A stretch of 64,000 nt of DNA from Mermis nigrescens (Eukaryota; Nematoda; Enoplea; Mermithida; Mermithidae). The notes beneath the pieces were generated by a model. It was not told the DNA's origin, ran no database searches, and saw only the letters and a program-made list of their open reading frames with translations. Positions 29,521 to 43,400 of this stretch are shown piece after piece. Where the stretch lies: NCBI GenBank assembly GCA_036768485.1, contig JAVLUZ010000142.1, forward strand, positions 14,728,407 through 14,792,406, written 5' to 3'. A program made the position numbers and the translations under genes. Within the stretch, counting starts at the first letter, position 1, and each line of letters starts with the position of its first letter.

Positions 29521-29935
29521 AAAGTTGCACCTCCGACGTAAAAATATATAACATGAAAAGCTAATTCCTTGAAAAGAAGCGATCACTAATAAAAAGCTGT
29601 ATAGCGTGCTTTGTAACGCTTGTATGGTATGCATTGTATGGGGCAGCAATTAACAAGATGGTGTGCTTGATATATTTCCCTTAACCAGCCATTGACGATT
29701 AAGTATGTAAAACAAGGCTTCCTCATCATATGTTTTTCTGAGCTAGTGAACAATGTTTTATGAAGGCACGCTTTTTTCGGAAGGCACGCTGTTTCAGAAG
29801 CCGCAGAATATACTTCGATTTTAGCGTTAGTAGTAATGGCTGTCAGCCTGGGGGCAACGCTGTAGGATAGGCTGTGTTATAACATAGGCGATGACGTAAA
29901 AATCTGCTCCCTGAGGTAAGCTGAGGGAGGCCCCG

Positions 29936-30480
29936 TCATCCTTTCCGAATAGATTCCCATTTTGCGCTACTGTCCAGCTTCGCTATTCCTGTTACAATAG
30001 CTCTGGGTAAAAAAAAAAGCGATAAATTATCATTTGATGTAATTTTAATAAATGCTCCTCCATTTTTGCAGAACTCACTCACATCAAATTCCAGACCACA
30101 ACCTATTTGTGGTCTCCTATCAACGAGTACTACCTTAAATTCCATGTCTTCGTTGAAGCAAAGCTCATTCTTCGATTGAGCCACATTTCTATAATACTCA
30201 AAACCTTATCAGCATTAATATACTGGCGCTCAGTAAATGGAACTAACACAGGCGTATTAAGGCTTGGCTGTCTAATTTCAATGCCTACCATACTGTCGGA
30301 AGGGCAGCCATGTAACATCTTGTTAATAGCTTCCTCAAAATCTGTTCAAAAATCTCAAAGAGATTAGGGCATTCTATGAAGGTTCTTAAAACGCAACAAA
30401 AATGCCTTGGCAGTTGTCCTAAACCTACGAACAGAAATGCTCAGAGTTTATGTATTTCCAAAGTACTGATTCAGATCCAT
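29936..30480 (-). pseudogene. Polinton DNA polymerase B, N-terminal part (broken)
   Basis: From an ATG at 30,480 the reading begins MDLNQYFGN and then meets a stop. Continuation in other frames gives MVGIEIRQPSLNTPV, then VSEFCKNGGAFIKI, RAIVTGIAKLD and KWESIRKG at the left edge. These blocks match the N-terminal domain of Polinton protein-primed PolB. At least one in-frame stop and several frameshifts break it. The exonuclease and polymerase domains are absent here. The gene lies divergently from the zinc-ribbon ORF and has its own TATA box at 30,512-30,519. Confidence 0.8.
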
Positions 30481-30511
30481 TTTTGAGTAAAATTATATGT
30501 ATGTATATCCA

Positions 30512-30519
30512 TATTTATA
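30512..30519 (-). promoter_or_regulatory. TATA box of PolB
   Basis: TATAAATA on the minus strand within GTCTATAAATATGG. Its first T is 39 nt upstream of the PolB ATG (30,480). It forms a divergent pair with the plus-strand box at 30,530. Confidence 0.7.
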
Positions 30520-30529
30520 GACAAAAATC

Positions 30530-30537
30530 TATAAATA
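30530..30537 (+). promoter_or_regulatory. TATA box of zinc-ribbon ORF
   Basis: ATCTATAAATACTAA. The first T is 39 nt upstream of the ATG at 30,569, and an A-rich leader (aataaaaATGG) precedes the start. Confidence 0.75.
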
Positions 30538-30568
30538 CTAATATTTTGTTACTTAAAAAATAATAAAA

Positions 30569-30910
30569 ATGGAGGAAATTCAGGAAATAAAAAAGCGTTC
30601 ATTCGTGGACACGGAAAGGAAACCGTATGGGAGGCAATAAAGCCGCCCATTGAGATATGTGGTCGTAATATGGAGAGGCCCATGTACCCTTTGATGATTC
30701 AACTTTGTTATTTTTGCCAAAAAGCATCGTGTGAACGGGAATTTTTTGAAACTAACGGGGGTCTATGGTACATTAATATTCAGATGTGCCCTAGATGTGG
30801 GGGAATATAATAGAGCAGCGCAGGAGGCTGGAACTAAAGTGCTCAAACGGTATGCATCAGAAGCAGCCGAAGAACTAAAAGCTAAAATTGCTCAAGAAAA
30901 AAGTCTATAA
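30569..30910 (+). pseudogene. Small zinc-ribbon-like protein (frameshifted)
   Basis: The ATG start reads MEEIQEIKK, then an A-run frameshift leads into a frame with LCYFCQKASC and MCPRCG, two CxxC knuckles 23 residues apart. A second shift in a G-run leads to a lysine- and alanine-rich helical tail ending in KSL-stop. That stop (TAA) lies inside the TATA box of the next gene. An undamaged version would be about 110 aa. Paired CxxC knuckles are typical of zinc ribbons, including those of transcription factors, but no family can be assigned. The function is unknown. Confidence 0.6.
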
Positions 30911-30913
30911 ATA
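30906..30913 (+). promoter_or_regulatory. TATA box of second small ORF
   Basis: GTCTATAAATATGA, embedded in the last codons (KSL-stop) of the upstream ORF. The first T is 46 nt before the ATG at 30,952; the nearer ATG at 30,913 lies within the box. Confidence 0.7.
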
Positions 30914-30951
30914 TGAACCCACTAGCGTAATTTCAATAATCTCTTAAAAAC

Positions 30952-31279
30952 ATGGCTTCCCCGGAGAGCTTACCTACCAGCAATTTATCCTTAAGCTTGT
31001 TGAAAAAGCCTGTAAACGGTTTGTGACGAATCGTGATGTTCATAGTATAGGTGCCTTTTTCTGGAGAATTGTTAATGATGAGTTTAAGGAGCAAAGAAAA
31101 GAAGAGCTCAAACGCGACGCGTTTTGGCGGATTTGCGTTGAGACTTGAAAGATTGTATTCTGGAAAAGAAAACGGAACAGCTGTTCAGCCTATGGCAACA
31201 GTTCAATTCAAACGGGAAGAACCTGTTTGAAAATATGTACGATAATTGTATTTGGTACAACGTAAATTGTCTTATATAG
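30952..31279 (+). pseudogene. Small Polinton ORF of unknown function (frameshifted)
   Basis: The start reads MASPESLP and stops after 20 codons. An overlapping frame gives FPGELTYQQFILKLVEKACK, HSIGAFFWRIVNDEFKEQRK and FWRICVET. A further shift gives KTEQLFSLWQQFNSNGKN and ends at about 31,279. The segments are charged, helix-rich and contiguous, as expected of one decayed gene of about 110 aa. No domain is recognised. It sits between the zinc-ribbon ORF and the integrase with a TATA box at both ends. Confidence 0.5.
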
Positions 31280-31288
31280 CTCTCCCAT

Positions 31289-31296
31289 TATAAATA
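31289..31296 (+). promoter_or_regulatory. TATA box of integrase
   Basis: TATAAATA within CATTATAAATATTAA, 32 nt from the integrase ATG at 31,321. Confidence 0.75.
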
Positions 31297-31320
31297 TTAA
31301 TGCTAGTTTTTTCGTAAAAA

Positions 31321-32372
31321 ATGGACAGAAAATTGAAAAAGTTGTATTACGATACTAAATCGGGGCACTCTGGTGTAAACCAGCTGTACCTCAGAGCCAA
31401 AAGAGTATTTCCGAAATCAAGAATAAAACAATGGTTAGAAAAGCAACCATCATATACTTTGCACAAACCTGCATTAAGAAAATATCTGCGGAACAGGGTT
31501 TTAGTAAGCAGTATTGATGAACAGTGGCAAGCTGATCTGGTTGATCTCCAATCACTATCTCAGCGTAATGATGGGTACAAGTATTTATTGAACTGTATAG
31601 ACATTTTCTCAAAATACTCATGGTCTATACCCTTTAAAAAGCAAATTTTCTAATGATATTGTTGAAGCTTTCCAGAAAATCTTTAAAGATCGAAAACCGA
31701 ATAAATTACAGACTGATGCAGGTAAAGAATTCGTGAACAAAGAAGTTTCAGAAATTTTTAAAATCTGAATCCTGTTGACTTTTTTGTTACTAAAAGCGAA
31801 CTTCGAAAGCATCGGTAGTAGAACGATTTAATCGCACGTTAAAAGAGAAAAATGTGGCGGTACTATACTAAAAAGAATACGTACAGGTACATTGACGTCT
31901 TAGACAATCTCATGCATAATTATAATCATTCTATGCATAGAACTATAGGTACATTTCCAGCTAAAACGTTACGCCAAAAAACGAGCAAGAAATTTTAAAT
32001 AAAGCCTTTCGCATTACAAAAAAAGATGCAGTATTTAAGTTCAATGTTGGCGATAAGATACGTCTAAGTAAAGTTAAGCGCACTTTTGAAAAAGGATACT
32101 GGCCCAATTGGACTGAAGAATTTTATATCGTTAAAGAGAGATACGCTAGAACACCACCAGTGTATAGTTTAGAAGACCAAATGGGTGAAAAATTAGAAGG
32201 TATTTTCTATGAACCAGAACTGCAAAAAATTGACGTTTCAACTGAAGATTTATTCATTGTCGAAAAAATTCTAAAAACTCGAAAACGCGGCAACAAAACT
32301 GATTATTTTGTTCGATGGAGAGGTTACCCGCCCAAATTTGATTCTTGGGTCCCTGATCTGATAAACGTATAA
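31321..32372 (+). pseudogene. Polinton retrovirus-like integrase with chromodomain (frameshifted)
   Basis: DDE integrase that would insert the linear element into DNA. The first frame carries a zinc-binding-like N-terminus and WQADLVDLQ with the first catalytic Asp, then GYKYLLNCIDIFSKYSW. A shift near 31,650 leads to LQTDAGKEFVN with the second Asp, and another leads to SVVERFNRTLKEK with the Glu. The C-terminus (32,160-32,369) ends in a chromodomain, TDYFVRWRGYPPKFDSWVP. All three acidic residues remain but several frameshifts separate them, so it is inactive as read. The gene converges with TBP across a repeat-filled gap. Confidence 0.9.
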
Positions 32373-32635
32373 ATGGTAATTTTGAATCTGATTTTGAAAC
32401 AGGAAAAATGGAGGCTGGTCATTGTTTCTTCAAGCAAATTGCAAAATGTCTACTTTTCTGACACGCTATTTTAGTCTTTTCAAGCTTCATTAGGAAATGC
32501 TTAGAAAAAGGCGACGTGTGCACCCTGTCCAAGTTATGCCAGTATTTAAGCCCCAAGGCTGAATTTTATTCTGCTAATCTTTATGCAAAAAGCTTTATTA
32601 TGATCACATTTCTTCATCTAAAAAGCGCAAATTTT

Positions 32636-32822
32636 TTGTAAAGTTTGGAAAATTTCTTGCAAAGTTTTGGAAAATTTTTGTAAAGTTTGAAAAATTTCTT
32701 GCAGAGTTTGGAATCAATTTTATATGCTTAAGGATAGCAAATTTGTAGACATTAGAAAATTTATTGTAAAGTTTGAAAAATTTCTTGCTGGAATTGAAAA
32801 ATTTTTGCAATGAATGAAACTT
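32636..32822 (+). repeat. GTAAAGTTTGGAAA iterated array, copy 1
   Basis: About eight degenerate copies of a ~20-bp unit (gtaaagtttggaaaattt) fill the convergent gap between integrase and TBP. Related arrays lie at 39,260-39,560, 40,590-40,710, 41,915-42,215 and 43,125-43,400. The last two are inverted, and the last again follows a TBP copy. Confidence 0.8.
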
Positions 32823-32826
32823 TAGT

Positions 32827-33342
32827 TCATCCAATTTGGCATTGCTCAAGCATTGATTCAACTATTTTATGTGCTATATGCAATTCATGTTCTCTTTTTG
32901 CACCAGTGAGAATCATTTTTCCGCTTGTAAAGAGTAAAAACGTTACATTTCTGAATTTATATATTAAGCCAGGAAAGAGTTCTACTTCATACATGCATTT
33001 TCTTTTAACCAACTCATAAAATTTGCAAAGATTTATGCGAAATCCTAAATCAGCAGAGCCTACAAACAGCTGAGGCTGTATTTTTAGGTAACAGGCTTGT
33101 GCATTTATTAGCTCTATAAAATGTTTTATTGCATTTTCGCCATCTTTAACTTTTTTAGCTCCTACGCATACTATTTTACCTGACTTGAATATCAATAATG
33201 TAGCATGAGGTGGTCGATATATGATACCTGGAAATTTCTGAGGGTTATATTGTGCAGTATTTGGTAATTTTGCATATATCTCATCTAGATCAAGTGTGTC
33301 TTTAAGTGCTGCAGTAAGCACTATGTTCTGAATAGTAACCAT
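32827..33342 (-). CDS. TATA-binding protein homologue encoded by the Polinton
   Basis: A 171-residue intact protein made almost only of the two TBP core repeats. Repeat 1 starts TIQNIVLT and includes QYNPQKFPGIIY and LLIFKSGKIVCVGAK. Repeat 2 includes VGSADLGFRINL, EVELFPGLIYKF and LLFTSGKMILTGAK. TBP forms a saddle that binds the minor groove of the TATA box and kinks it with four phenylalanines. The aligned residues Phe37, Phe52, Phe123 and Phe138 are all present. The Asn of repeat 1 (Asn6) is kept, but its partner in repeat 2 is Leu92. There is no N-terminal extension, and the loops between paired phenylalanines are about two residues shorter than in animal TBP. It is divergent from the ATPase gene, with its own TATA box. 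A role in element-specific transcription is inferred. The alternative is a captured host TBP paralogue. Confidence 0.95.
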   Translation of the reverse strand: MVTIQNIVLTAALKDTLDLDEIYAKLPNTAQYNPQKFPGIIYRPPHATLLIFKSGKIVCVGAKKVKDGENAIKHFIELINAQACYLKIQPQLFVGSADLGFRINLCKFYELVKRKCMYEVELFPGLIYKFRNVTFLLFTSGKMILTGAKREHELHIAHKIVESMLEQCQIG

Positions 33343-33346
33343 TTTC

Positions 33347-33354
33347 TATATATA
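33347..33354 (+). promoter_or_regulatory. TATA box of ATPase
   Basis: TATATATA within TTCTATATATACCC. The first T is exactly 40 nt from the ATPase ATG (33,387). It lies next to the TBP start codon on the other strand. Confidence 0.72.
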
Positions 33355-33374
33355 CCCACCTGTTTCTTAATACA

Positions 33375-33382
33375 TATTTATA
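33375..33382 (-). promoter_or_regulatory. TATA box of TBP gene
   Basis: TATAAATA on the minus strand within GGTTTATAAATATG. The first T (33,382) is exactly 40 nt from the TBP ATG (33,342). Together with 33,347 it makes a symmetric 44-bp divergent promoter. Confidence 0.75.
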
Positions 33383-33386
33383 AACC

Positions 33387-34040
33387 ATGATTTTTCAACA
33401 CCCTTTTACTTGCCTTGTTTCTGGGCCAACAAAGTCTGGCAAGACAACTTTTGTCAGGCAATTATTAGAAAACAGAGCACACTTGTTTGATACAAAAATT
33501 AAAAAGATTTGGTGGTGCTTTGCCGAAAATCAGCCGCTGTATAGGGAAATGCAAGATGTTTCATTTATAGAAGGGCTTCCTGATTTTAGTTATTTAAAAA
33601 AGTTTAGTCCAATGCCGCAACTTTTGATATTAGATGATCTAATGCAAGAGAGCAAGGGTAATGTTCAAATTGTACAGCTTTTCACAAGGAGATGTCATCA
33701 TTGGAATATTAGCATCATTCACATTGTTCAAAATGTGTTCTTTGAAGGCCTCAGAACTTCACGCATAAACTCTGATTATATAGTCTTATTTAAAAACCCT
33801 GCCGATCAATTACAGTCACAAATTTTGTCTCGCCAACTTTATCCAACAAATTCCAAATATTTCCTAGAAGCTTATTCTGATGCTACCTCTCAGCCACATG
33901 GCTATCTCTTGATAGATCTCACCCAAAATGCTAGAGATGAATTAAGACTTAAAACAAACATATTTAGCAAGCATCCGACTGTTTATGTAAAAAAATCTAT
34001 AAATACTAATAATGACGGTGTAACCAATAAAAATGGGTAA
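33387..34040 (+). CDS. Polinton genome-packaging ATPase (FtsK/HerA type)
   Basis: 217 aa. Walker A GPTKSGKT is at residues 13-20 and Walker B LLILDDLM at 79-86, followed by TRRCHHWNISIIHIVQN, a typical sensor region. Polinton ATPases of this family are related to the DNA-packaging enzymes of double-jelly-roll viruses and are thought to load DNA into the capsid. The frame is intact and the length is normal for the family. The start is set by the TATA box 40 nt upstream. The 3' end overlaps the next gene by 8 nt, and the last codons (KSINTN) are encoded across that gene's TATA box. Confidence 0.92.
   Translation: MIFQHPFTCLVSGPTKSGKTTFVRQLLENRAHLFDTKIKKIWWCFAENQPLYREMQDVSFIEGLPDFSYLKKFSPMPQLLILDDLMQESKGNVQIVQLFTRRCHHWNISIIHIVQNVFFEGLRTSRINSDYIVLFKNPADQLQSQILSRQLYPTNSKYFLEAYSDATSQPHGYLLIDLTQNARDELRLKTNIFSKHPTVYVKKSINTNNDGVTNKNG
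33998..34005 (+). promoter_or_regulatory. TATA box of 116-aa gene
   Basis: ATCTATAAATACTAA inside the 3' end of the ATPase gene. The first T is 35 nt before the ATG at 34,033. A nearer ATG (34,012) opens only three codons. Confidence 0.75.
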
Positions 34041-34383
34041 AGAACGATTAAAACGCAATATTGTGTGCTTACACCTTCTGAGTCGAGCAAGAAAACCTCA
34101 AAGGGAGTCAATTATAAATACTGCCAGTAAAGATCAAATACTTTGTCTCTGTGACTGTGCAAGCAATTTTTTAAATGGTAACATTCCTTTTTCCGAAAAA
34201 GATATAAACAAACTTCGGAGATATCAAAATCAAATAAGACGTCTGGCAAATAATAAACAAATCAGTACAAAAGAAAGAAAAAATATTATAGTACAGGACG
34301 GTGGTTTTCTTCCTCTTTTGTTAACTCCGATACTTACAATTGCAGGCAGTCTTTTAGCTGATGCAATAACAGGTAGAAAATGA
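34033..34383 (+). CDS. Small conserved Polinton protein with C-terminal hydrophobic segment
   Basis: 116 aa: a basic, helical N-terminal part (INKLRRYQNQIRRLANNK), then a glycine-led hydrophobic stretch GGFLPLLLTPILTIAGSLLA near the C-terminus. Proteins of this shape (charged helix, GGFLP-type hydrophobic end) are common next to capsid genes in Polintons. A membrane-active or capsid-cement role is plausible but unproven. The frame is intact. Its TGA overlaps the ATG of the next gene (ATGA), and that gene has no TATA box of its own, suggesting one dicistronic message. Confidence 0.7.
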   Translation: MGKERLKRNIVCLHLLSRARKPQRESIINTASKDQILCLCDCASNFLNGNIPFSEKDINKLRRYQNQIRRLANNKQISTKERKNIIVQDGGFLPLLLTPILTIAGSLLADAITGRK

Positions 34384-34946
34384 AACATACTGAAAAAATG
34401 ATTCTTATACCCGCTGAAATCAGCGAGCGGACTAAACCTATTGATGTTGTGCTAGAGTCCTTGGATAATGAGATGCAGAAAGTGTTGAACAGCAAAAATA
34501 TACCATCTGATTTAAAACTTATAAAATATAATCAGATACTTGGCAAATTTAAGCGATTGCATGAACAGAAACAGGAACCGTACAAAGCCAATATAATTGA
34601 ACATACAAAAGATGTACTTAGCAATGATGAAATACTAACTGCTATGCCAAAAAATCAAATTCCAAAGGCTAAAATGCTTCTCCACTATATTCGTACAAAC
34701 CCTTTTATTGAAATAGAGTCTGATGGTGAGCTTGTTATAGATGGGCAAAAAATTGAAGGCTCAAACATTACAGATTTAATTAATGATTTAGCACGTGAGC
34801 GTAAGAAAATAAGCAGACATCCTGGTACAAAGGAATTGCTGAAAGTGTTGAACCGCACAAATGTCCCACTAGCAAGTATTGGTAATAGACAAGGTAGGGA
34901 AATTTTTGCCGCAGGTGATGACTTTGACTGGGACGAAAGTCTATAA
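34380..34946 (+). CDS. Conserved Polinton protein, 188 aa, unknown function
   Basis: Acidic and helical, with no membrane segment. It contains KNQIPKAKMLLHYIRTNP and ELVIDGQKIEGSNITDLIND, blocks I recognise from uncharacterised proteins of many animal Polintons. The C-terminus is FDWDESL-stop; the stop codon is inside the TATA box of the following gene. The start overlaps the previous stop as ATGA. A second in-frame ATG (34,398) could also serve. It is probably virion-associated, inferred from its position in the capsid block. Confidence 0.7.
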   Translation: MKHTEKMILIPAEISERTKPIDVVLESLDNEMQKVLNSKNIPSDLKLIKYNQILGKFKRLHEQKQEPYKANIIEHTKDVLSNDEILTAMPKNQIPKAKMLLHYIRTNPFIEIESDGELVIDGQKIEGSNITDLINDLARERKKISRHPGTKELLKVLNRTNVPLASIGNRQGREIFAAGDDFDWDESL

Positions 34947-34949
34947 ATA
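34942..34949 (+). promoter_or_regulatory. TATA box of 146-aa gene
   Basis: GTCTATAAATACC. Its TATAA carries the TAA stop of the 188-aa gene. The first T is 45 nt before the ATG at 34,987. Confidence 0.75.
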
Positions 34950-34986
34950 CCTTGTGTGTTTCAATTTTTGTGAAATAATCACAAAA

Positions 34987-35427
34987 ATGCATGTTCAATT
35001 TACTCCCGACAATTACAACATTTGGCTGGAATATTATACAGGGCAGGCTGCCCAAACTGGTTATGGATTGGATGGGTTTAAAGGCATCCCATACCAGCGG
35101 GGCGTTGGTCTTGGCAACTTTTTCCGCTCCCTATTCAGAATGGCCATCCCTGTTCTGCAATCAATTGGTAAGCAAGTTGGAAAGCATGCTTTAGTTGCAG
35201 GTTCAAATATAGCATCCGATTTGGCCCAGGGAAAACCTCTTTTTGAGTCTACTAAAAAGCATTCAAAGCGAGAAGCTGCCCAACTTTTTGATGAAGCCTC
35301 TCATGCCCTAGAACATCAGCAAGGAGAGGGTCTTGGTAGTCGCCCAAAGTCTATAAATACTAATGCACTTGATGCGTTTTCTAAAAAACATGGCTCTCAT
35401 AGACGTAAAATCTATTCCGAGTACTAA
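34987..35427 (+). CDS. Small Polinton virion-type protein, 146 aa
   Basis: Starts MHVQFTPDNYNIWLEYYTGQ. The centre has a glycine-rich amphipathic segment GVGLGNFFRSLFRMAIPVLQ followed by GKQVGKHALVAGSNIASDL. The C-terminus is basic (KKHGSHRRK). The amphipathic segment followed by a lysine-rich tail resembles adenovirus core or minor proteins and the equivalent uncharacterised gene next to capsid genes in other Polintons; the homology is not proven. The ATG at 34,987 is chosen because it lies 45 nt from the TATA box. The 3' end overlaps the major capsid gene by 38 nt and contains its TATA box. Confidence 0.72.
   Translation: MHVQFTPDNYNIWLEYYTGQAAQTGYGLDGFKGIPYQRGVGLGNFFRSLFRMAIPVLQSIGKQVGKHALVAGSNIASDLAQGKPLFESTKKHSKREAAQLFDEASHALEHQQGEGLGSRPKSINTNALDAFSKKHGSHRRKIYSEY
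35352..35359 (+). promoter_or_regulatory. TATA box of major capsid gene
   Basis: GTCTATAAATACTAA within the preceding gene (coding SINTN). The first T is 38 nt before the ATG at 35,390. The upstream in-frame ATG at 35,363 is only 11 nt away and would precede the expected transcription start. Confidence 0.78.
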
Positions 35428-36682
35428 AACTGAGTTAGACCTTTTCACGGTCCCTCCTACCCAAGTGGTAGTAAAGCGCGGCTTTTGGCATGAAATACAA
35501 CCAACGCATCCCATAACTAATGAGGGACCATATGAATTTAGAATACCTCCCGATCCTCATTATATTCAGCTGAACAAAAATTACATTTATATGCTACTAA
35601 GAATTAAAAAACCAACAGTTGCTGCAGGATCAGTAGTACCTGACTATGCACCTATCAATCTTATTGGTAAAACTTTTTTCAAGCAAGTAAAATGTTTTCT
35701 AGGAGGCCGTTTAGTTTTTGACAGCTCCGATAAATATGCATATAGATCTTATTTTGAAACTGAATTAAATTATGGATTTGATGCAAAGCATTCACACTTA
35801 CAGGCAGCATTATATTTTCATGATGGCGGCATTAATGTTGACACAAAAGATAGTGAATCATTCAAAAAGCGAGCTGCTATGTTTAAAGATGAAAATTTTG
35901 TAGAAGTTGCGGCTCCACTGCATATTGATATGTTCTTGCAAGATAGGTATTTAGTCAATTTTACCGATTTTCGCTTAGAATTACACAGAAATAGTAATGC
36001 ATTTGCTTTGCAGTGTTTTGAAGATGTTAACTTAGATTTGAAAGTCTCTCAAATGAAATTTTTTATTCGAAAAGTTGAGGTTTTGGACACAGTAAATTTA
36101 GCTCTAGAGCAAACAATGCTTTCATACACAGCCAAATATCCTATAAGGCGCGTAGCTATCACTAACTTGCATATATCAAACCCTGCTAGGGAAACGCCAA
36201 ATTATACATTGTTCACTGGTCAGCTACCTAGACGTATTGTATTTGCTTGTGTTGAAGGCAGTGCTTATCGAGGCAATCTAGCAAAATCGCCTTTCAACTT
36301 CAAACCTTTCAGCATATATGATGCAAAAGTAACGTGTGGGGGTATAACCTACCCTGCTTACCCACTTGGCATTGCATTCAAACATGATAGGTACTTGCAA
36401 GCCTATAATCAAATGTATGATGCACTCGATATAGGCCGTGAAGGTAATTTCATTAGCAGAGATGAGTTTAAGACAAGTCACTGCTTTTTTGTATTCGACT
36501 TGACACCTGATGCAGATGATGGGGGGCATTGGGATCTAGCACATGAAGGAACAACAAGCATAACTGTAAGGTTTGCTGATAATTTGCCTGATTCTGGCAT
36601 AGAAATCATTATATATGCTGAATTTGATAATTTAATAATGATTGATAAAAATCGAAACACATTTCATGACTATAGTGCATAA
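35390..36682 (+). CDS. Polinton major capsid protein (double jelly-roll)
   Basis: 430 aa from MALIDVKSIPSTKTELDLFT. It includes PYEFRIPPDPHYIQLNKNYI, FFKQVKCFLGGRLVFDSSD and SYFETELNYGFDAK, hallmarks of the protein family often annotated F54H12.2-like. Structural comparison in the literature identified this family as the double-jelly-roll major capsid protein of Polintons. Length and motif order look complete and there is no internal stop. It would form the trimeric capsomers. An alternative start 27 nt upstream is less likely given the TATA position. The protease gene follows after 2 nt. Confidence 0.93.
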   Translation: MALIDVKSIPSTKTELDLFTVPPTQVVVKRGFWHEIQPTHPITNEGPYEFRIPPDPHYIQLNKNYIYMLLRIKKPTVAAGSVVPDYAPINLIGKTFFKQVKCFLGGRLVFDSSDKYAYRSYFETELNYGFDAKHSHLQAALYFHDGGINVDTKDSESFKKRAAMFKDENFVEVAAPLHIDMFLQDRYLVNFTDFRLELHRNSNAFALQCFEDVNLDLKVSQMKFFIRKVEVLDTVNLALEQTMLSYTAKYPIRRVAITNLHISNPARETPNYTLFTGQLPRRIVFACVEGSAYRGNLAKSPFNFKPFSIYDAKVTCGGITYPAYPLGIAFKHDRYLQAYNQMYDALDIGREGNFISRDEFKTSHCFFVFDLTPDADDGGHWDLAHEGTTSITVRFADNLPDSGIEIIIYAEFDNLIMIDKNRNTFHDYSA

Positions 36683-36684
36683 AC

Positions 36685-37110
36685 ATGAATACTATGGAAG
36701 TATTTAAAATTCTTGAACGTAATATCAAAATGGATATGTTTTTGGGCGTTTTTCCATTAGACCGCTTACCACCTATAAAAAACTATCCTGCAGCTATAGT
36801 GGTTAATTTGGATGCTAGCAATGAGCCTGGTTCACACTGGGTTGCTTTGTATTTTGTAAGCAAGAAACGCTGTGACTATTTTGATAGCTATGGCTTAGAG
36901 CCACCTGTGCAATTGAAGCATTATATTTCTGATAATGCGCTTTCATTTACATACAATAATGTCCAAACACAAGGGCTTTTTTCCATTAGTTGTGGACATA
37001 TGTGCATCTACTTCCTCTTATGCAGGAGTAATGATATTCCCTTCAAAAATATTGTTCTATCTATGCTGAGCGAAAAAATTTATAAATACTTTGATAAGCT
37101 TAAATTATAA
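36685..37110 (+). CDS. Polinton maturation protease (adenain-like, Ulp1 clan)
   Basis: A 141-aa cysteine protease expected to process capsid proteins. The triad is visible: His51 in GSHWVALYF, Asp67 in DYFDSYG and Cys103 in FSISCGHMCIYFLL, with a Gln near 94-96 for the oxyanion hole. It is shorter than adenovirus protease but comparable to other Polinton PRO proteins, and the frame is intact. No TATA octamer lies at the usual distance. With only 2 nt between the capsid stop and this ATG, it is probably expressed from the capsid transcript. The last codons overlap the TATA box of the next gene. Confidence 0.9.
   Translation: MNTMEVFKILERNIKMDMFLGVFPLDRLPPIKNYPAAIVVNLDASNEPGSHWVALYFVSKKRCDYFDSYGLEPPVQLKHYISDNALSFTYNNVQTQGLFSISCGHMCIYFLLCRSNDIPFKNIVLSMLSEKIYKYFDKLKL
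37081..37088 (+). promoter_or_regulatory. TATA box of minor capsid gene
   Basis: ATTTATAAATACTTT inside the 3' end of the protease gene. The first T is 32 nt before the ATG at 37,113. Confidence 0.75.
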
Positions 37111-37112
37111 AA

Positions 37113-37889
37113 ATGGATACTAAACAATTCTATTTAACGCTTCCGAGCAATTCACAGGAAGCCAATACTGCGGCTACATTTGTAACTGGCCTGCCAAGGC
37201 AAATTATATTATCTGGCGATTGGGAAGTTGGTTTAGCTGAGATAATTTATGCTAATACATGGCACAATGTTGCTGAGGATCAGAATATGATACAATTTTA
37301 TGATTTTAAAAATAATGTACGAGTAAAAATGCTTATTCCTAGAGCTAGATACCAAAATATACACGATCTTATTAAAACAATCAGTGAGGGAATGAAAATG
37401 GTTAGTCAAAATGAAAAATTTGAATATACTGAGTACCTGACTTTCAAGTATCATGAAAATAAGAAATTTTGTCATATAGTAATTAACACTGCATACATTA
37501 AAAGCTTAAAGCTAACGAATCATTTGATGTATATGTTAGGCTTTTTAGATAGTCAGCTTAAAAATGTAAATTATACTCTTGCACAAGAAGTGACCATAGC
37601 TGCCCATCACTCTCCTGACATGCTAGGCGGAATGCACAATTTTTACGTTTATTGCGATATAATTGAGCCTCAAATTGTTGGAAACGTTTTTGCGCAACTT
37701 TTGCAGGTTGTAAACATTGAAGGAAAATACATGGATATTGTAAACCATGCATATATTAGCCCACACTATATACCCGTGCTGAAGAAATCATTTAACACAA
37801 TTGAAATAAATATCAAAACGGATCAAAATCAGCCCGTACCTTTTGAATTCGGCAAAACTATCGTAAAATTGCATTTTAGACACCAATAG
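37113..37889 (+). CDS. Polinton minor capsid (penton-type) protein
   Basis: 258 aa beginning MDTKQFYLTLPSNSQ, then TFVTGLPRQIILSGDWEVGL and AEIIYANTWHNV. This is the N-terminal signature of the Polinton minor capsid protein with a single jelly-roll, proposed to form the capsid vertices. The C-terminal part has the LHFRH end also seen in relatives. The gene is intact and of normal length. It is the last complete gene of the block; a further TATA box lies 3 nt after its stop. Confidence 0.88.
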   Translation: MDTKQFYLTLPSNSQEANTAATFVTGLPRQIILSGDWEVGLAEIIYANTWHNVAEDQNMIQFYDFKNNVRVKMLIPRARYQNIHDLIKTISEGMKMVSQNEKFEYTEYLTFKYHENKKFCHIVINTAYIKSLKLTNHLMYMLGFLDSQLKNVNYTLAQEVTIAAHHSPDMLGGMHNFYVYCDIIEPQIVGNVFAQLLQVVNIEGKYMDIVNHAYISPHYIPVLKKSFNTIEINIKTDQNQPVPFEFGKTIVKLHFRHQ

Positions 37890-37891
37890 AC

Positions 37892-37899
37892 TATAAATA
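37892..37899 (+). promoter_or_regulatory. TATA box after the capsid block
   Basis: GACTATAAATAAAAC, with the first T 38 nt before an ATG at 37,930 (caaaaATG) that opens only 18 codons. The gene it served seems cut off by the rearrangement that brought in the PolB fragment. Confidence 0.65.
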
Positions 37900-37929
37900 A
37901 AACCTATGTAGGTTACATATAATACAAAA

Positions 37930-37986
37930 ATGATTTTCTTGTTGGTGCTCTTACATTCCACATATGGGGTTGATCCATGTATATGA
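37930..37986 (+). pseudogene. Truncated start of an unidentified Polinton ORF
   Basis: An 18-codon frame (MIFLLVLLHSTYGVDPCI-stop) correctly placed after a TATA box. It is too short to identify. It lies at the presumed inversion breakpoint. Confidence 0.35.
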
Positions 37987-37995
37987 AAATGAGTT

Positions 37996-38202
37996 ATGGT
38001 AATTTGCCATAATTTAGCAGACTATAGTAGCACGTCACACTCTGCAAAAATACAAAAAGTTCTAGTGCCCGACTACCAAATAAAAGTATATTATAATAAT
38101 ATTTTGTTTTTTCAAGGACCTGTGGCTGATAAGGTGCTTGATTTACATGCTGCTAATAATCATCATTATGATCTGATTACAAAAATGCCTCAAGTGCAGT
38201 AA
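37996..38202 (+). pseudogene. Polinton PolB fragment (second segment)
   Basis: An open 68-codon frame with VPDYQIKVYYNNILFFQGP, DKVLDLHAANNHHYDLI and TKMP. It matches the part of Polinton PolB that normally follows the N-terminal block found at 29,936-30,480. Here it is on the opposite strand and about 7.5 kb away. The frame ends at a stop and the rest of the polymerase is missing. A tandem GTGTAAAG array begins shortly after. Confidence 0.75.
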
Positions 38203-38850: not shown

Positions 38851-39054
38851 CTATATTATAACACAGGAACCCCTCTCAGGGCGCACATTGTCATAAGCCA
38901 GGGCGCACGTTTTAACCCCCGTTTTTCAGCTGCCTACCACGTTTGCCTGATACTATAACACAGGAAAAAAGTTCCCGAACCTAGTTCCACCTATCTTATA
39001 ACATGGGCTATATTATAACGTTGTACACCCCAGGGTCGACAGGGTATACTACTC

Positions 39055-40550
39055 ACATGATTTTATTGATTAAAACTAAAGAACAAGTGCTTGTGATTTT
39101 TGTCTTACTGGTATAATTGGAAATTGCATTTAAAATAGTATTACTTAAATACAATAGAAGAATAAGTGCTACACGAGTTTTAATCGTTTTTGTATAAGGC
39201 TATTGAGATTTATATTTTCTCGACATGCTAACAATATTTTTGATCTAAGTGAACAAATTTTTGTATTTTTTGGAAATTTTTTGTAAAGTTTGGAAAAATT
39301 TTTGTAAAGTTTGGGAACTTTTTTGTGAAATTCGGAAAATTTTTTGTAAAGTTTGGAAAATTTTTTGCAGAGTTTGGAATTAATTTTGTGTGCTTAAGCA
39401 TAGGACTTTTGCAGAGTTTGGAAACTTTTTTGTAAACTTTGGAAATTTTTTTGCAAAGTTTGGAAATTATTTGTAAAGTTTGAAAATTTTTTTGTAAAGT
39501 TTGGATTTTTTTGTAAAGTTTGGAACATTTTTTAGTAAGGTTTGGAATATTTTTTGTTGAAGCCTGAACAAAACTTGTAAAATTTAGAACAAAGCATGTA
39601 AAAGTCATAAGAAAGTTTTATAAATGTTTAGAAATCCCAATTCAACCATAATTAAAGGGGTATATATCTGCCCATATTGCATCCAAAAATCCTTGTTTTT
39701 ATTGCCTAAGTTAATAAGGCAAGTTGCAGAGATAAGCATAATAGGTATACTGTTAAGCATCAGAACAGAAATTTGTATTTGTGAGGCTGTGTTATCTGCC
39801 TTATTGGGAAGGTGTAGCATGATATAAAGCTAGTATTGCACTGTGCGCTTAAAATTTCTTGTTAATTGATAACAAGCATAATAAAGCTAGCCTAAGCACA
39901 CCAAATGTGCCAGAAATACTCATATTGTATACTTAAAACTATTCAAATTCCACACTTTATTGAGATAGCGTGTGCTGCAAAAAAACAACATAATTCTCTT
40001 TGTTATTTTTCTCACAAGCAGGCTACAATGCGCATGCCTGCATACATGAGCAGCCCTGCATGCCTGAAATCGAATTATATTGGCGTATACCCACCTATCA
40101 AGAAAGGCTACAGCTTACAACTACTCATCCTGAATGATCCAAATATGCGCTTATCAGGGGGTGCTGATAGTGTTATCTGTTTTTAGGAGTATTATTGCTT
40201 ACAGCCCAAATTCTTAACATCAGATATAGAACGCTGTTTAGAATGAAAAGGATTAATTTTGCTCAATGAAAGGCTGTGCCTATCAGTTCTTGGCAATACA
40301 CTATGCAGCAGAGCTTTCTATAGGGGTGGGGCAAATCCCCCTTCCTCAGGGTTAAATACTGTTAGGCGATTTTAGCGAAATTTAACGCGGCCAAGTAGTA
40401 CATTTCTGTATGATTTCAGCGAACTTTCACACCAAGTAGTACATGAGTTCTGTTTTTACCCATAAAATTCCTAGAATGAAGTGAAAATGAACTGATTAGT
40501 CTATTTTAGCGACAAAATTCTTATATTTTCGACTAATAAAGATATTATGA
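39055..40550 (+). repeat. Large palindrome, left arm
   Basis: About 1.5 kb that matches 40,960-42,440 in reverse complement with moderate divergence. Both arms carry a GTAAAGTTTGGAAA array and short unsupported frames (MRMPAYMSSPACLKSNYIG and MLHLPNKA...). The mirror axis is near 40,755. Confidence 0.85.
39260..39560 (+). repeat. GTAAAGTTTGGAAA array, copy 2
   Basis: About a dozen ~20-bp units. The internal variant 'gtttggaattaattttgtgtgc' matches 'gtttggaatcaattttatatgc' of copy 1. Confidence 0.8.
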
Positions 40551-40959
40551 ATAGTTTGTGTGGGAGGATTCCTCCCACCCATATAGAAAGCTGGAAATTT
40601 TTTTGTAAAGTTTGGAAATTTTTTTGTAAAGTTCGGAAATTTTGCGTAAAGATTGGAAAAATTTTTGTAAAGTTTGGAAACTTTTGTAAAGTTTGGAACA
40701 TTTTTTCTTACTTGTATTAAAACCTGCAACATTAAGTGAGCAATTTTGCAACATGACAAGCATCAGGCTGTATGCTTTTTGTCTGTATCATGAAAAACAT
40801 CATCTTAGTACAAGTTTATCTTTATGGCAGAGTTTCCCAAGTTCAAAACTTCAGGGAAAGGGATACAGACCTTATATTTGAGACCACTAATTTAGAGTTT
40901 TTGTTATACAAAATCTCATAGTGCAGAAAAACGCAATTCTTTTTATCAGTTCTGTTTAC
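40551..40959. other. Centre of the large palindrome
   Basis: About 410 bp not shared between arms. It contains a short GTAAAGTTTGGAAA array (40,590-40,710) and otherwise no gene. Confidence 0.6.
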
Positions 40960-42440
40960 TATTCTTATTATCTTTATTAGTGGAAAATATAAGAATTTTG
41001 TCGCTAATATTGACTAATCACTTCATTTTAACTTTATTCTAGAAATTTTATGGGTAAAAACAGAACTCATGTACTACTCGGTGTGAAAGTTCGCTTAAGT
41101 CATACAGAAATGTACTACTTGGCGTTAAATTTCGCTAAAATCGTCTAACAGTGTTCTCGAGGAAGAGGGATTTGCCCCACCCCTAGAGAAAGCTGTGCTG
41201 CATAGTGTATGGCCAAGTACTGATAGGCACAGCCTTCCATTAAGCAAAATTAATCCTTTCCTTCTAAACAGCATTCTATATGTGATGCTAAGAATTTGTG
41301 CTAGAAGCAATAATACTGTTAAAAATAGATAACACTATCCGCACCCCTGATAAGCGCATATTTGGATCATTCAGGATGAGTAGTTGTAAGCTATAGCTGT
41401 TCTTGATAGTTGGGTATAAGCCAATATAATTCGATTTCAGGCATGCAGGGCTGCTCATGTATGCAGGCATGCGCATTGTACTACTTGTGAGAAAAATAAC
41501 AAAGAGAATTCTGTTGTTTTTTGCAGCACACGCTATCACAATAAAGTGTGGAATTTGAATAGTTTTGTATATACAATATGAGTATTTCTGGCACATTTAG
41601 TGTGTGCTTAGGCTAGCTTTATCATGCTCGTTATCAACTTAACGAGCAAAGTTTAAGCGCACAGCGCAATACTAGCTTTATATCATGCTACACCTTCCCA
41701 ATAAGGCAAATAACGCAGCCTCACAAATACAAATTTCTGTTCAGATGCTTAACAGTATACCTATTATGTTTATCTCTGCAACTTGCCTTATTAACTTAGG
41801 CAATAAAAACAAGGATTTTGGATGCAATATGGGCAGATATACCCTTTTAAATATGGCTGAATTCGGATATCTAAACATTTATAAAAGTTTCTTCTGCCTT
41901 TTACAAGCTTTGTTTTAAATTTTACAAGTTTTGTTCCGACTTCCACAAAAAATATTCCAAACCTTACACAAGATGTTCCAAACTTTACAAAAAAATTCCA
42001 AACTTTACAAAAAAAATTTCCAAACTTTACAAAAAAATTTCCAAACTTTACAAAAAAGTTTCCAAACTCTGCAAAAGTCCTATGCTTAAGCACACAAAAT
42101 TAATTACAAACTCTGCAAAGAATTTTCCAAACTACTTTTACAAAAAAAATTTCCGAACTTTCACAAAAAAGTTTCCAAACGTCTACAAAAATGTTTCAAA
42201 ACTTTGCAAAAAATTTCCTAAAAAATACAGAAATTTGTTCACTTAGAACAAAAATATTGTTAGCATGTTGAGACAATATAACTATCAATAGCCTTATACA
42301 AAAACGATTAAAACTCGAGTAGCACTCATTCTTCTATTGTATTTAACTAATACTATTTTAAAAGCAATTTCCACTTATACCAATAAGACAAAAATCACAA
42401 GCACTTGTTCTTGTAATTTTAATCAATAAAATCATGTGTT
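40960..42440 (-). repeat. Large palindrome, right arm
   Basis: Inverse of 39,055-40,550. It includes the inverted array at 41,915-42,215 ('tttccaaactttacaaaaaa'). Confidence 0.85.
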
Positions 42441-42870
42441 TACATAAGACATTGTAAAGAATAAGCATACCTAAAATCTTCTAATCAGACGATTTTTAAA
42501 CTCTGCATGAAATTTGTTGAATTTTAGGAGGTTATAAGTACAAAATGCAGTACTTTTGGATTATTTCATCTTTTTCATGTTTATTCTTGCAGATACGCAG
42601 CCTTCAAGCTATACTTTAGCTTGTCACCTTTATGTGAAATAACTTCACCTCCATAGGTATGCAACTTGAACAGCTTTAGTGGTTTTTAATTGTATGCTCA
42701 AACAAATCTCGGAATCTTTATGCATCATTTACTCAATTCACACGACACATATCAAATTTAGCTGAAGTGAGTCTAAAGTTTTATCCCAACTTTGTGCTTA
42801 TTATGCTGTATTTCCTCAAATCGAATCACTGAAATCACTGAAAAAAATTTTTCTCAATCAATTAAAAAAT
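42441..42870. other. No gene recognised
   Basis: AT-rich sequence between the palindrome and the TBP fragment. Confidence 0.35.
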
Positions 42871-42879
42871 GATTTTATT

Positions 42880-43098
42880 ATGGGTTCTGCTTATTTAGGG
42901 TATCGTATTATTCTATATAAATTTTATGAGATGGTAAATGGGAAGTGCATGTGCGAAGTAGAATTGTTTCTTTGTTTAGTATACAAGTTTAGAAATGTAA
43001 CATTTTTGCTGTTTACAAGTGGGAAAATGATTCTTACGGGTGCAAAACTAGAACACGAGTTGCACGTTGCATATATAAATAGTTTCAGCATTACTTGA
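42880..43098 (+). pseudogene. Second, truncated Polinton TBP copy
   Basis: Encodes only repeat 2 of the TBP fold: GSAYLGYRIILYKFYEMVNG, then CEVELFLCLVYKFRNVTF and LLFTSGKMILTGAK. It is a close relative of 32,827-33,342 but lacks repeat 1 and has LCL in place of PGL. As at copy 1, the 3' end is followed by a GTAAAGTTTGGAAA-type array (43,125-43,400, inverted). So a TBP-array segment from a second Polinton copy or a duplication is stranded here. Confidence 0.9.
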
Positions 43099-43124
43099 GA
43101 AATGCCCTATTGAATAGCAAAAGT

Positions 43125-43400
43125 TTCAAACTTCACAACAAATTTTCCAAACTTTACAAAAAAATTTCCAAACCTTATAAGAATTTTCCAAACTTTACAA
43201 AAAATTTTCCAAACTTTGCAAAATTCCTCTGCTTAAGCACGCAAAATTAATTCCAAACTCTGCAAAAAATTTTCCAAACTTTACAAAAAATTTTCCAAAC
43301 TTTACAAAAAATTTCTAAACGTTTACAAAAAATTTCCAAACTCTACAAAAAAAATTTTTAAACTTTACAAAAACTTTATAAAAGATATTCCAAATTTAGG
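43125..43400 (-). repeat. GTAAAGTTTGGAAA array, inverted, beside TBP fragment
   Basis: About twelve copies of 'ttccaaactttacaaaaaa', downstream of the TBP fragment exactly as array 1 follows the intact TBP gene. Confidence 0.8.

What the first reader, a model, noticed from the sequence alone, without database searches (positions are those of the whole stretch)
32827..33342. A Polinton that encodes its own TATA-binding protein
Seen: an intact 171-aa frame whose two halves align throughout with the TBP core (TIQNIV, YNPQKFPGIIY, LLIFKSGKIVCVGAK; ELFPGLIYKF, LLFTSGKMILTGAK). It lies between the Polinton integrase and ATPase. Known: TBP is a host general transcription factor and, to my knowledge, is not in the described Polinton gene set. 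Inference: the element supplies its own promoter-recognition factor.
Basis: partly seen in the sequence, partly recalled or inferred. Interest (0 to 1): 0.96.

Follow-up and report, generated by a model that had tools for sequence, protein, structure and literature searches.

The report
Polintons with their own TATA-binding protein
Many copies of a virus-like mobile element (a Polinton) in this genome carry an intact gene for a TATA-binding protein that is not a recent copy of the host's own, and this protein is predicted to switch on the element's genes from the TATA boxes that lie in front of most of them.

Summary
The frame is real: 171 aa on the MINUS strand (32827-33342), PF00352 at E=5e-45, predicted TBP saddle (pLDDT 92.7; TM 0.93 to human TBP on DNA). 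It lies in a Polinton (broken integrase, packaging ATPase, protease, double-jelly-roll capsid), head to head with the ATPase. It is no chance insertion: of the 150 best TBP matches in the host genome 94 have a listed ATPase 43-49 bp away in the same layout, and 15 of 16 sampled 'unpaired' ATPases have a TBP match there too. At least seven TBP groups occur; 14 of 19 fetched loci hold Polinton hallmark genes. One metagenomic Polinton shows the same pair. A tree uniting the window lineage with host TBP is rejected. dN/dS is 0.10-0.24 in the informative pairs. The element has TATAAATA 9 times on one strand against 0.64 expected; 8 genes have a box 32-45 nt before their start. The metagenomic relative lacks these boxes. 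DNA and TFIIB contacts are kept; TFIIA contacts mostly not. Best reading: the element's own promoter factor. Function is untested. Not found in the Polinton texts I could search; giant viruses and mirusviruses have TBPs.

The parts
32827..33342 (-). TATA-binding protein gene, 171 aa, intact
   Evidence: PF00352 E=5.4e-45; AlphaFold2 pLDDT 92.7; PDB TBP matches
33343..33386 (.). 44-bp divergent TBP/ATPase promoter gap with a box facing each gene (TATATATA towards the ATPase, TATAAATA towards TBP)
   Evidence: boxes in related copies: TCTATAWATA in 17 of 21 and TATTTATA in 20 of 21 gaps, 14 distinct sequences
33387..34040 (+). packaging ATPase (A32-like), 217 aa
   Evidence: PF04665 E=8e-05, 22.7 bits against a cut-off of 22.8; HMM built from relatives
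31318..32372 (+). Polinton integrase with chromodomain, spread over four frames (broken in this copy)
   Evidence: rve PF00665 E=0.016, below cut-off; HMM pieces; the open frame in relative L022 has rve and Chromo over cut-off
34033..34383 (+). conserved small protein p116
34380..34946 (+). conserved protein p188; no TATA box found before it
34987..35427 (+). conserved protein p182 (start at the conserved Met is inferred)
35393..36682 (+). major capsid protein, double jelly roll (start at the conserved Met is inferred; the longer frame begins at 35363)
   Evidence: 324 metagenomic relatives; AlphaFold2 pLDDT 86.0; PBCV-1, Sputnik, iridovirus, mavirus capsid folds
36685..37110 (+). adenovirus-type cysteine protease; no TATAWATA box found before it
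   Evidence: PF00770 E=0.00045, 20.4 bits against a cut-off of 21.3; relative L016 over cut-off
37113..37889 (+). p258, conserved in relatives (minor capsid protein by position, inferred)
30530..37899 (+). array of TATAAATA boxes at 30530, 30906, 31289, 33998, 34113, 34942, 35352, 37081, 37892
   Evidence: 9 against a simulated mean of 0.64 in 30501-38000; distances to start codons
30566..30889 (+). zinc-ribbon-like accessory gene, broken in this copy; in groups B and C it lies beside TBP
30187..30432 (-). match to the frame that precedes PolB in relatives; no PolB body found in the window
   Evidence: tblastn E=1e-10
42859..43074 (+). second, decayed TBP copy (C-terminal half), 69% identical

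Best explanation
The window holds a Polinton whose gene set includes its own TATA-binding protein, and this protein likely recognises the TATAAATA boxes set in front of most of the element's genes and would recruit host TFIIB and RNA polymerase II to transcribe them. Shown: the gene, its place beside the ATPase in many copies, its presence in several groups of Polintons, selection on the protein, the TATA array, and the kept DNA-contact and TFIIB-contact residues. Inferred: that this protein rather than host TBP binds these boxes, that it works with host TFIIB, and that the loss of TFIIA-contact residues frees it from part of the host's control of TBP. In this reading the element brings the first step of promoter recognition and borrows the rest from the host.
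For: TBP fold with the four intercalating Phe in 11 of 12 element or metagenome rows (Tyr once) and Glu284/Glu286 in 12 of 12. Same divergent TBP/ATPase layout at 43-49 bp in 94 of the 150 best TBP matches, and TBP matches at 15 of 16 sampled ATPases that had no listed partner. Hallmark Polinton genes in 14 of 19 TBP loci fetched. One metagenomic Polinton with the same pair. dN/dS 0.10-0.24 in seven informative pairs. TATAAATA 9 times on the coding strand against 0.64 expected, none of 2000 simulations as high; 8 of 13 TATAWATA sites stand 32-45 nt before a recognised gene, TBP included; 16 of 42 gene starts against 2 of 42 in each of three controls. Box facing TBP kept in 20 of 21 gaps, box facing the ATPase in 17 of 21.
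Against: No binding, expression or transcription data. TATAAATA is also a good site for host TBP (recalled), so the boxes do not show which TBP is used. L001, which has the same gene pair, has TATAAATA before 0 of 9 genes. Two window genes (p188, protease) have no box. With the looser patterns TATAWAW and TATAWA the antisense control is high, 10 and 18 of 42 against 26 and 28. A codon-preserving shuffle reaches the observed count inside genes in 36 of 2000. The 42 gene starts are partly related and were placed by me.
Confidence: 0.6

Rival explanations
1. The element's TBP acts on the host: a decoy or competitor that occupies host promoters or host TFIIB and dampens or redirects host transcription, while host TBP transcribes the element from ordinary TATA boxes.
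For: DNA and TFIIB contacts kept while TFIIA contacts are mostly changed, as a competitor might be; TATAAATA also suits host TBP (recalled).
Against: Boxes are concentrated in the element on the coding strand and stand at a set distance before its genes. The TBP gene sits in a shared promoter gap with the packaging ATPase, which fits a part of the element's own programme.
Confidence: 0.17
2. The protein is used as a DNA-bending factor in packaging, replication or integration, for example to steer the integrase to promoters, and not for transcription.
For: It neighbours the ATPase or integrase in several groups.
Against: Its place varies between groups (beside ATPase, zinc ribbon, F-box gene, p258); TFIIB-contact residues are kept in 12 of 12 rows; no tRNA genes in the window or in 21 loci, so no sign of Pol III targeting.
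Confidence: 0.13
3. A host TBP copy was carried along by chance and has no use for the element.
For: Some copies are broken: 13 of the 150 best matches have stops inside, and the second TBP copy in the window is decayed.
Against: dN/dS 0.13-0.24 between distinct subgroups; kept in several groups and in a metagenomic relative; a clade of window lineage plus host TBP is rejected.
Confidence: 0.05

Closest known systems
Polintons / Mavericks (Polintoviricetes, with adintoviruses)
   Same: rve integrase with chromodomain, A32-like packaging ATPase, adenovirus-type protease, double-jelly-roll capsid; gene set as described in the introduction of PMC11071308 (passages)
   Different: Carries a TBP. 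Term searches of five Polinton or Polinton-like-virus texts found no 'TATA' or 'TBP'. PolB of the window lineage was not found.
TBPs of giant viruses (Nucleocytoviricota)
   Same: Virus-encoded TBP. PMC12085832 proposes that TFIIB and TBP of a Chrysochromulina virus redirect host RNA polymerase to viral genes (passage); TBP in Mimiviridae (PMC3620924, passage) and in megavirus chilensis (PMC11464507, passage)
   Different: Genomes far larger; viral models in BFVD are only 8-21% identical to the window TBP in the 50 listed matches (TMq up to 0.81), against 36-42% and TMq 0.93 for cellular TBPs
TBPs of mirusviruses
   Same: TBP in 59% of mirusvirus genomes (PMC10132985, passages)
   Different: Other virus realm features (HK97-fold capsid), much larger genomes; no mirusvirus TBP was compared here
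TBP-related factors of animals (TRF1)
   Same: Divergent paralogues of TBP with changes at TFIIA-contact positions
   Different: Host genes; they group away from the element TBPs in the tree
Virophages with promoters shared with their giant virus
   Same: A repeated promoter motif before many genes of a small capsid-bearing element (recalled; shared promoters stated in PMC10328495, passage)
   Different: Virophages borrow the helper's transcription system; here the element carries a TBP itself

Membership tests
Polinton | Retroviral-type (rve) integrase | tested here: met
   Open in near-identical relative L022: rve E=2.3e-11 and Chromo E=4e-09, both over cut-off; broken in the window copy
Polinton | Packaging ATPase | tested here: met
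   Pox_A32 E=8e-05, 0.1 bit under the cut-off; same gene order in relatives
Polinton | Adenovirus/Ulp1-type protease | tested here: met
   Peptidase_C5 E=0.00045, under the cut-off for the window; over the cut-off in L016, 29.1 bits
Polinton | Double jelly-roll major capsid protein | tested here: met
   Fold matches to PBCV-1, Sputnik, iridovirus and mavirus capsids, E to 3e-14; no Pfam hit for the window protein, weak ones below cut-off for L020 and L001
Polinton | Protein-primed PolB | tested here: inconclusive
   Not found in the window or in adjoining pieces of two relatives, only a frame that precedes PolB elsewhere; DNA_pol_B_2 E=1.1e-19 in group C, tblastn PolB matches in E and G
Polinton | Terminal inverted repeats and target-site duplication | tested here: inconclusive
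   Window 38046-39053 matches the left part of L022 in inverted orientation in two pieces, but the window copy stops matching at 29935 on the left; ends and duplications were not defined
TATA-binding protein | Two PF00352 repeats and saddle fold | tested here: met
TATA-binding protein | Four DNA-intercalating Phe | tested here: met
   4 of 4 in the window; 11 of 12 element or metagenome rows, Tyr at one place in L011 (role recalled)
TATA-binding protein | Binds TATA DNA and supports transcription | not testable with these tools
   needs a binding and a transcription assay
Recent retrocopy of host TBP | Groups with host TBP in the tree | tested here: not met
   p-AU 6e-126 for window lineage plus host; 6e-4 for groups A and C with two metagenome rows plus host
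Giant-virus TBP | Closer to NCLDV TBPs than to cellular ones | tested here: not met
   By fold search only: 8-21% identity and TMq up to 0.81 in the 50 listed viral matches against 36-42% and 0.93 in PDB; no named NCLDV TBP in the tree

The most novel reading that the evidence does not exclude
A whole branch of Polintons carries a dedicated promoter system: a TBP of old, separate descent that has shed most of the contacts by which TFIIA and other host regulators control TBP, paired with an array of extended TATA boxes (TCTATAAATACT) at a set distance before most genes. Such elements would be a living intermediate between capsid-bearing transposons that lean on the host and giant viruses that bring their own transcription apparatus.
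Probability: 0.45. Interest if true: 0.93.

Novelty: new variant of a known kind. Interest (0 to 1): 0.84.

Why it matters
Polintons are proposed relatives or ancestors of many eukaryotic DNA viruses, and an open question is how some of those lineages gained independence from host transcription. A general transcription factor kept under selection in small integrated elements, with candidate target boxes beside it, makes that step testable in one genome with many near-identical copies. It also offers natural TBP variants that keep DNA and TFIIB contacts while most TFIIA contacts are changed.

Tried and rejected
IMG/VR scans with the window TBP, window capsid, capsid alignment A1, TBP alignment A2 and the L001 capsid found no relative. 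The GTDB contig scan gave one locus, L001. The zinc-ribbon protein was tested as a possible second transcription factor: no PDB match at E up to 10 and no Pfam family over cut-off; left open. Pol III targeting was tested by tRNA scans: none in the window or in 21 loci. dN/dS rows dropped from the quoted range: window-L040 (0.63; L040 taken in a frame with a stop), L011-L013 (0.43; very few changes), and three pairs with saturated silent sites that gave no ratio. Group D (L020) sits on a long branch outside the main clade; one clade for all is not rejected, p-AU 0.24. No named viral TBP was put in the tree. The 20 loci were chosen by me for variety from the 150 rows, not at random. A PolB search of the genome did not complete.

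Full report
WHAT IS THERE. The frame given in the finding is real but is read from the minus strand: 32827-33342, 171 codons, no stop. Pfam TBP matches at E=5.4e-45 (151.6 bits, cut-off 22.9) over two repeats. AlphaFold2 on an alignment of 14 such proteins gives pLDDT 92.7 and pTM 0.81; Foldseek places it on archaeal TBP (1mp9) and on human TBP bound to DNA (1cdw, TMq 0.93, 36% identity).

THE ELEMENT. Around it lie an integrase that matches in four separate frames (31318-32372; broken in this copy), the TBP (-), an A32-like ATPase (33387-34040), three small conserved proteins, a capsid protein, an adenovirus-type protease and p258. Pfam scores for ATPase and protease fall just under the curated cut-offs (22.7 against 22.8; 20.4 against 21.3) and the capsid has no Pfam hit. 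The capsid model (pLDDT 86.0) matches double jelly-roll capsid proteins of PBCV-1, Sputnik, iridovirus and mavirus, and the capsid has 324 metagenomic relatives at E up to 0.001. The integrase of a near-identical copy (L022) is open and carries rve and chromo domains. No PolB body was found in the window or in the neighbouring pieces of two relatives; three other TBP-bearing groups (C, E, G) have PolB matches close by. So the element is a Polinton by integrase, ATPase, protease and capsid; PolB of this lineage and the exact ends are unsettled.

MANY COPIES, SAME PLACE. The window lies in a 524-Mb assembly of 860 contigs. A search with the window TBP listed the best 150 of 2130 candidates, one with the ATPase the best 150 of 2058. 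Of the 150 TBPs, 94 lie head to head with a listed ATPase at 43-49 bp. Of the 150 ATPases, 99 have a listed TBP partner (the TBP list plus 13 matches taken). Both lists are cut off at 150, so I fetched about 700 bp upstream of 16 of the 51 unpaired ATPases: 15 of 16 have a TBP match in the same place, several of them in pieces; L030 has none. Over 121 bp across the TBP/ATPase junction 24 of the 40 scored copies (316 candidates) are identical to the window's, the window itself counted, which points to recent spread.

SEVERAL GROUPS. I fetched 20 loci chosen for variety from the 150 family matches. One, L010, is taken as the host's own TBP: a canonical sequence whose two halves match in frames about 2.6 kb apart (introns inferred). 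Of the other 19, 14 have a hallmark Polinton gene within the 9.9 kb (integrase, PolB, ATPase, protease or capsid; in L011 and L012 only a short integrase piece), 4 have only an accessory gene shared with those (L013, L026, L027, L028), and 1 (L023) only a weak F-box-region match. By sequence I sort these TBPs into seven groups, A to G. Place varies: between integrase and ATPase (A, window), beside the zinc-ribbon gene, F-box gene and PolB (C), beside zinc ribbon and integrase (B), after p258 (D).

OUTSIDE THIS GENOME. The one contig found elsewhere (L001, 11.6 kb, titled as a Planctomycetota MAG, so by inference a mis-binned eukaryotic element) has capsid 37%, TBP 37% and ATPase 39-59% identical in pieces (its ATPase lies in two frames), with TBP and ATPase again divergent and adjacent; its integrase lies elsewhere in the order. 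The protein search with the TBP alignment also found metagenome proteins 49% and 54% identical to the window TBP (P0197, P0141).

DESCENT AND SELECTION. In a tree of 68 rows, 15 of 16 rows labelled as element TBPs and 5 unlabelled metagenome rows form one supported group (97/86); group D, on a long branch, falls outside; host TBP sits with canonical eukaryotic TBPs. A clade of the window lineage with host TBP is rejected (p-AU 6e-126), as is one of groups A and C with two metagenome rows plus host (6e-4); one clade of all 16 with the 5 metagenome rows is not rejected (0.24). dN/dS: window-L022 0.10, window-L029 0.15, window-L025 0.19, window-L034 0.16, L029-L034 0.16, L029-L025 0.24, L015-L017 0.13; ATPase window-L029 0.09. 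Dropped rows are told under Tried and rejected.

THE TATA ARRAY. In 30501-38000 TATAAATA occurs 9 times on the plus strand; first-order simulations give 0.64 on average and none of 2000 reached 9. The 8.2-kb region 29901-38100 has 9 plus and 2 minus; the other 55.8 kb of window have 8 and 3. Of 13 TATAWATA sites in the element, 8 stand 32-45 nt before the start codon of a recognised gene: zinc ribbon 39 and integrase 32 (both broken in this copy), ATPase 40, p116 35, p182 45, capsid 41 (to the conserved Met at 35393; 20 to an earlier ATG), p258 32, and TBP itself 40 on the minus strand; 3 stand 38-46 nt before short frames and 2 have no gene. p188 and the protease have none. Several boxes lie inside the end of the preceding gene; a codon-preserving shuffle gives 1.3 against 4 observed, 36 of 2000 as high, so coding explains them poorly but not impossibly. 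Over 42 gene starts from the window and 11 loci (placed by me, partly related), 16 have TATAAATA 15-75 nt upstream against 2 in each of three controls; with TATAWAW it is 26 against 10 antisense, 4 and 5; with TATAWA 28 against 18, 6 and 8. In the TBP/ATPase gap of 21 copies (14 distinct sequences) the box facing TBP is kept in 20 and the box facing the ATPase in 17. L001 has neither, and TATAAATA stands before 0 of its 9 genes, so the box array is shown for this genome only.

RESIDUES. Against human TBP, 12 element or metagenome rows keep the four intercalating Phe in 11 cases (Tyr once) and Glu284 and Glu286 in all 12. Of the TFIIA-contact residues, Ala184 is kept in 5 of 12, Asn189 in 4, Glu191 in 1, Arg205 in 0; group D keeps three of the four. 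The basic residues of helix 2 are mostly changed, while host TBP keeps them. TRF1 and archaeal TBPs also differ at some of these places (counts are mine from its table; roles of residues recalled).

MECHANISM. Best reading: the element makes its own TBP, which binds the boxes before its genes and recruits host TFIIB and Pol II; a giant virus with TBP and TFIIB has been proposed to redirect host polymerase in this way (PMC12085832, passage). The TBP gene has a box itself, so it could feed back on its own expression. Not shown: binding, expression, or that host TBP is dispensable. Rivals are a host-directed decoy and a role in packaging, replication or targeting; no tRNA genes were found in the window or in 21 loci.

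KNOWN OR NOT. Ten literature searches were made; no listing, by title and start of abstract, reports a Polinton TBP, but not every listed paper was opened. Term searches of the main texts of PMC4642659, PMC11071308, PMC11071296, PMC10120064 and PMC7805220 found no 'TATA' or 'TBP'; PMC10328495 and PMC12721341 likewise. PMC12220804 has 'TATA' twice; the place shown is an author name in its references. PMC10675990 (passages) reports TATA-binding proteins in elements of putative mirusvirus kind in an alga. TBPs are known in Mimiviridae (PMC3620924), in megavirus (PMC11464507), in a Chrysochromulina virus (PMC12085832) and in 59% of mirusviruses (PMC10132985), all seen as passages. Two key papers on animal and nematode Polintons (PMC8502044, PMC10748475) and the review PMC5898198 are not held, so a mention there cannot be excluded. 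I file it as a new variant of a known kind: both parts are known, the combination and the box array were not found in print by these searches.

Noticed in passing
L015:5724-6608 (+), L014:6264-7166 (-), L011:5543-5875 (+): F-box proteins (PF12937/PF00646 over cut-off) encoded beside the TBP in several Polinton groups; a possible ubiquitin-ligase adaptor carried by the element.
   Followed up: partly
L015:4393-4821 (+), L011:4168-4539 (-), window 30566-30889 (+): Conserved small protein with two CxxC pairs (zinc-ribbon-like), next to TBP in groups B and C; no Pfam family over cut-off and no PDB match. Could be a second transcription or DNA-binding factor.
   Followed up: partly
G000:C51:3876189, 3884571, 3892956: Three TBP matches with the same two stops, about 8.38 kb apart: looks like a tandem array of one element.
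   Followed up: no
window 39054-42438: Large inverted repeat, arms of about 1.5 kb at 91% identity with a 0.4-kb centre, beside the Polinton; perhaps a fold-back element.
   Followed up: no
window 32629-32827 and 43119-43380: A minisatellite (units like TTCCAAACTTTACAAAAA) directly follows the 3' end of TBP in both the intact and the decayed copy, and recurs at 39258-39511 and 41917-42213.
   Followed up: no
window 34033-37113: Neighbouring genes overlap by 4-8 bases or lie 2 bases apart, with TATA boxes inside the preceding gene.
   Followed up: partly
L014:3205-3519 and L021:8236-8801: Second, shorter or broken TBP copies about 1.4-3 kb from the main one in groups E and D.
   Followed up: no
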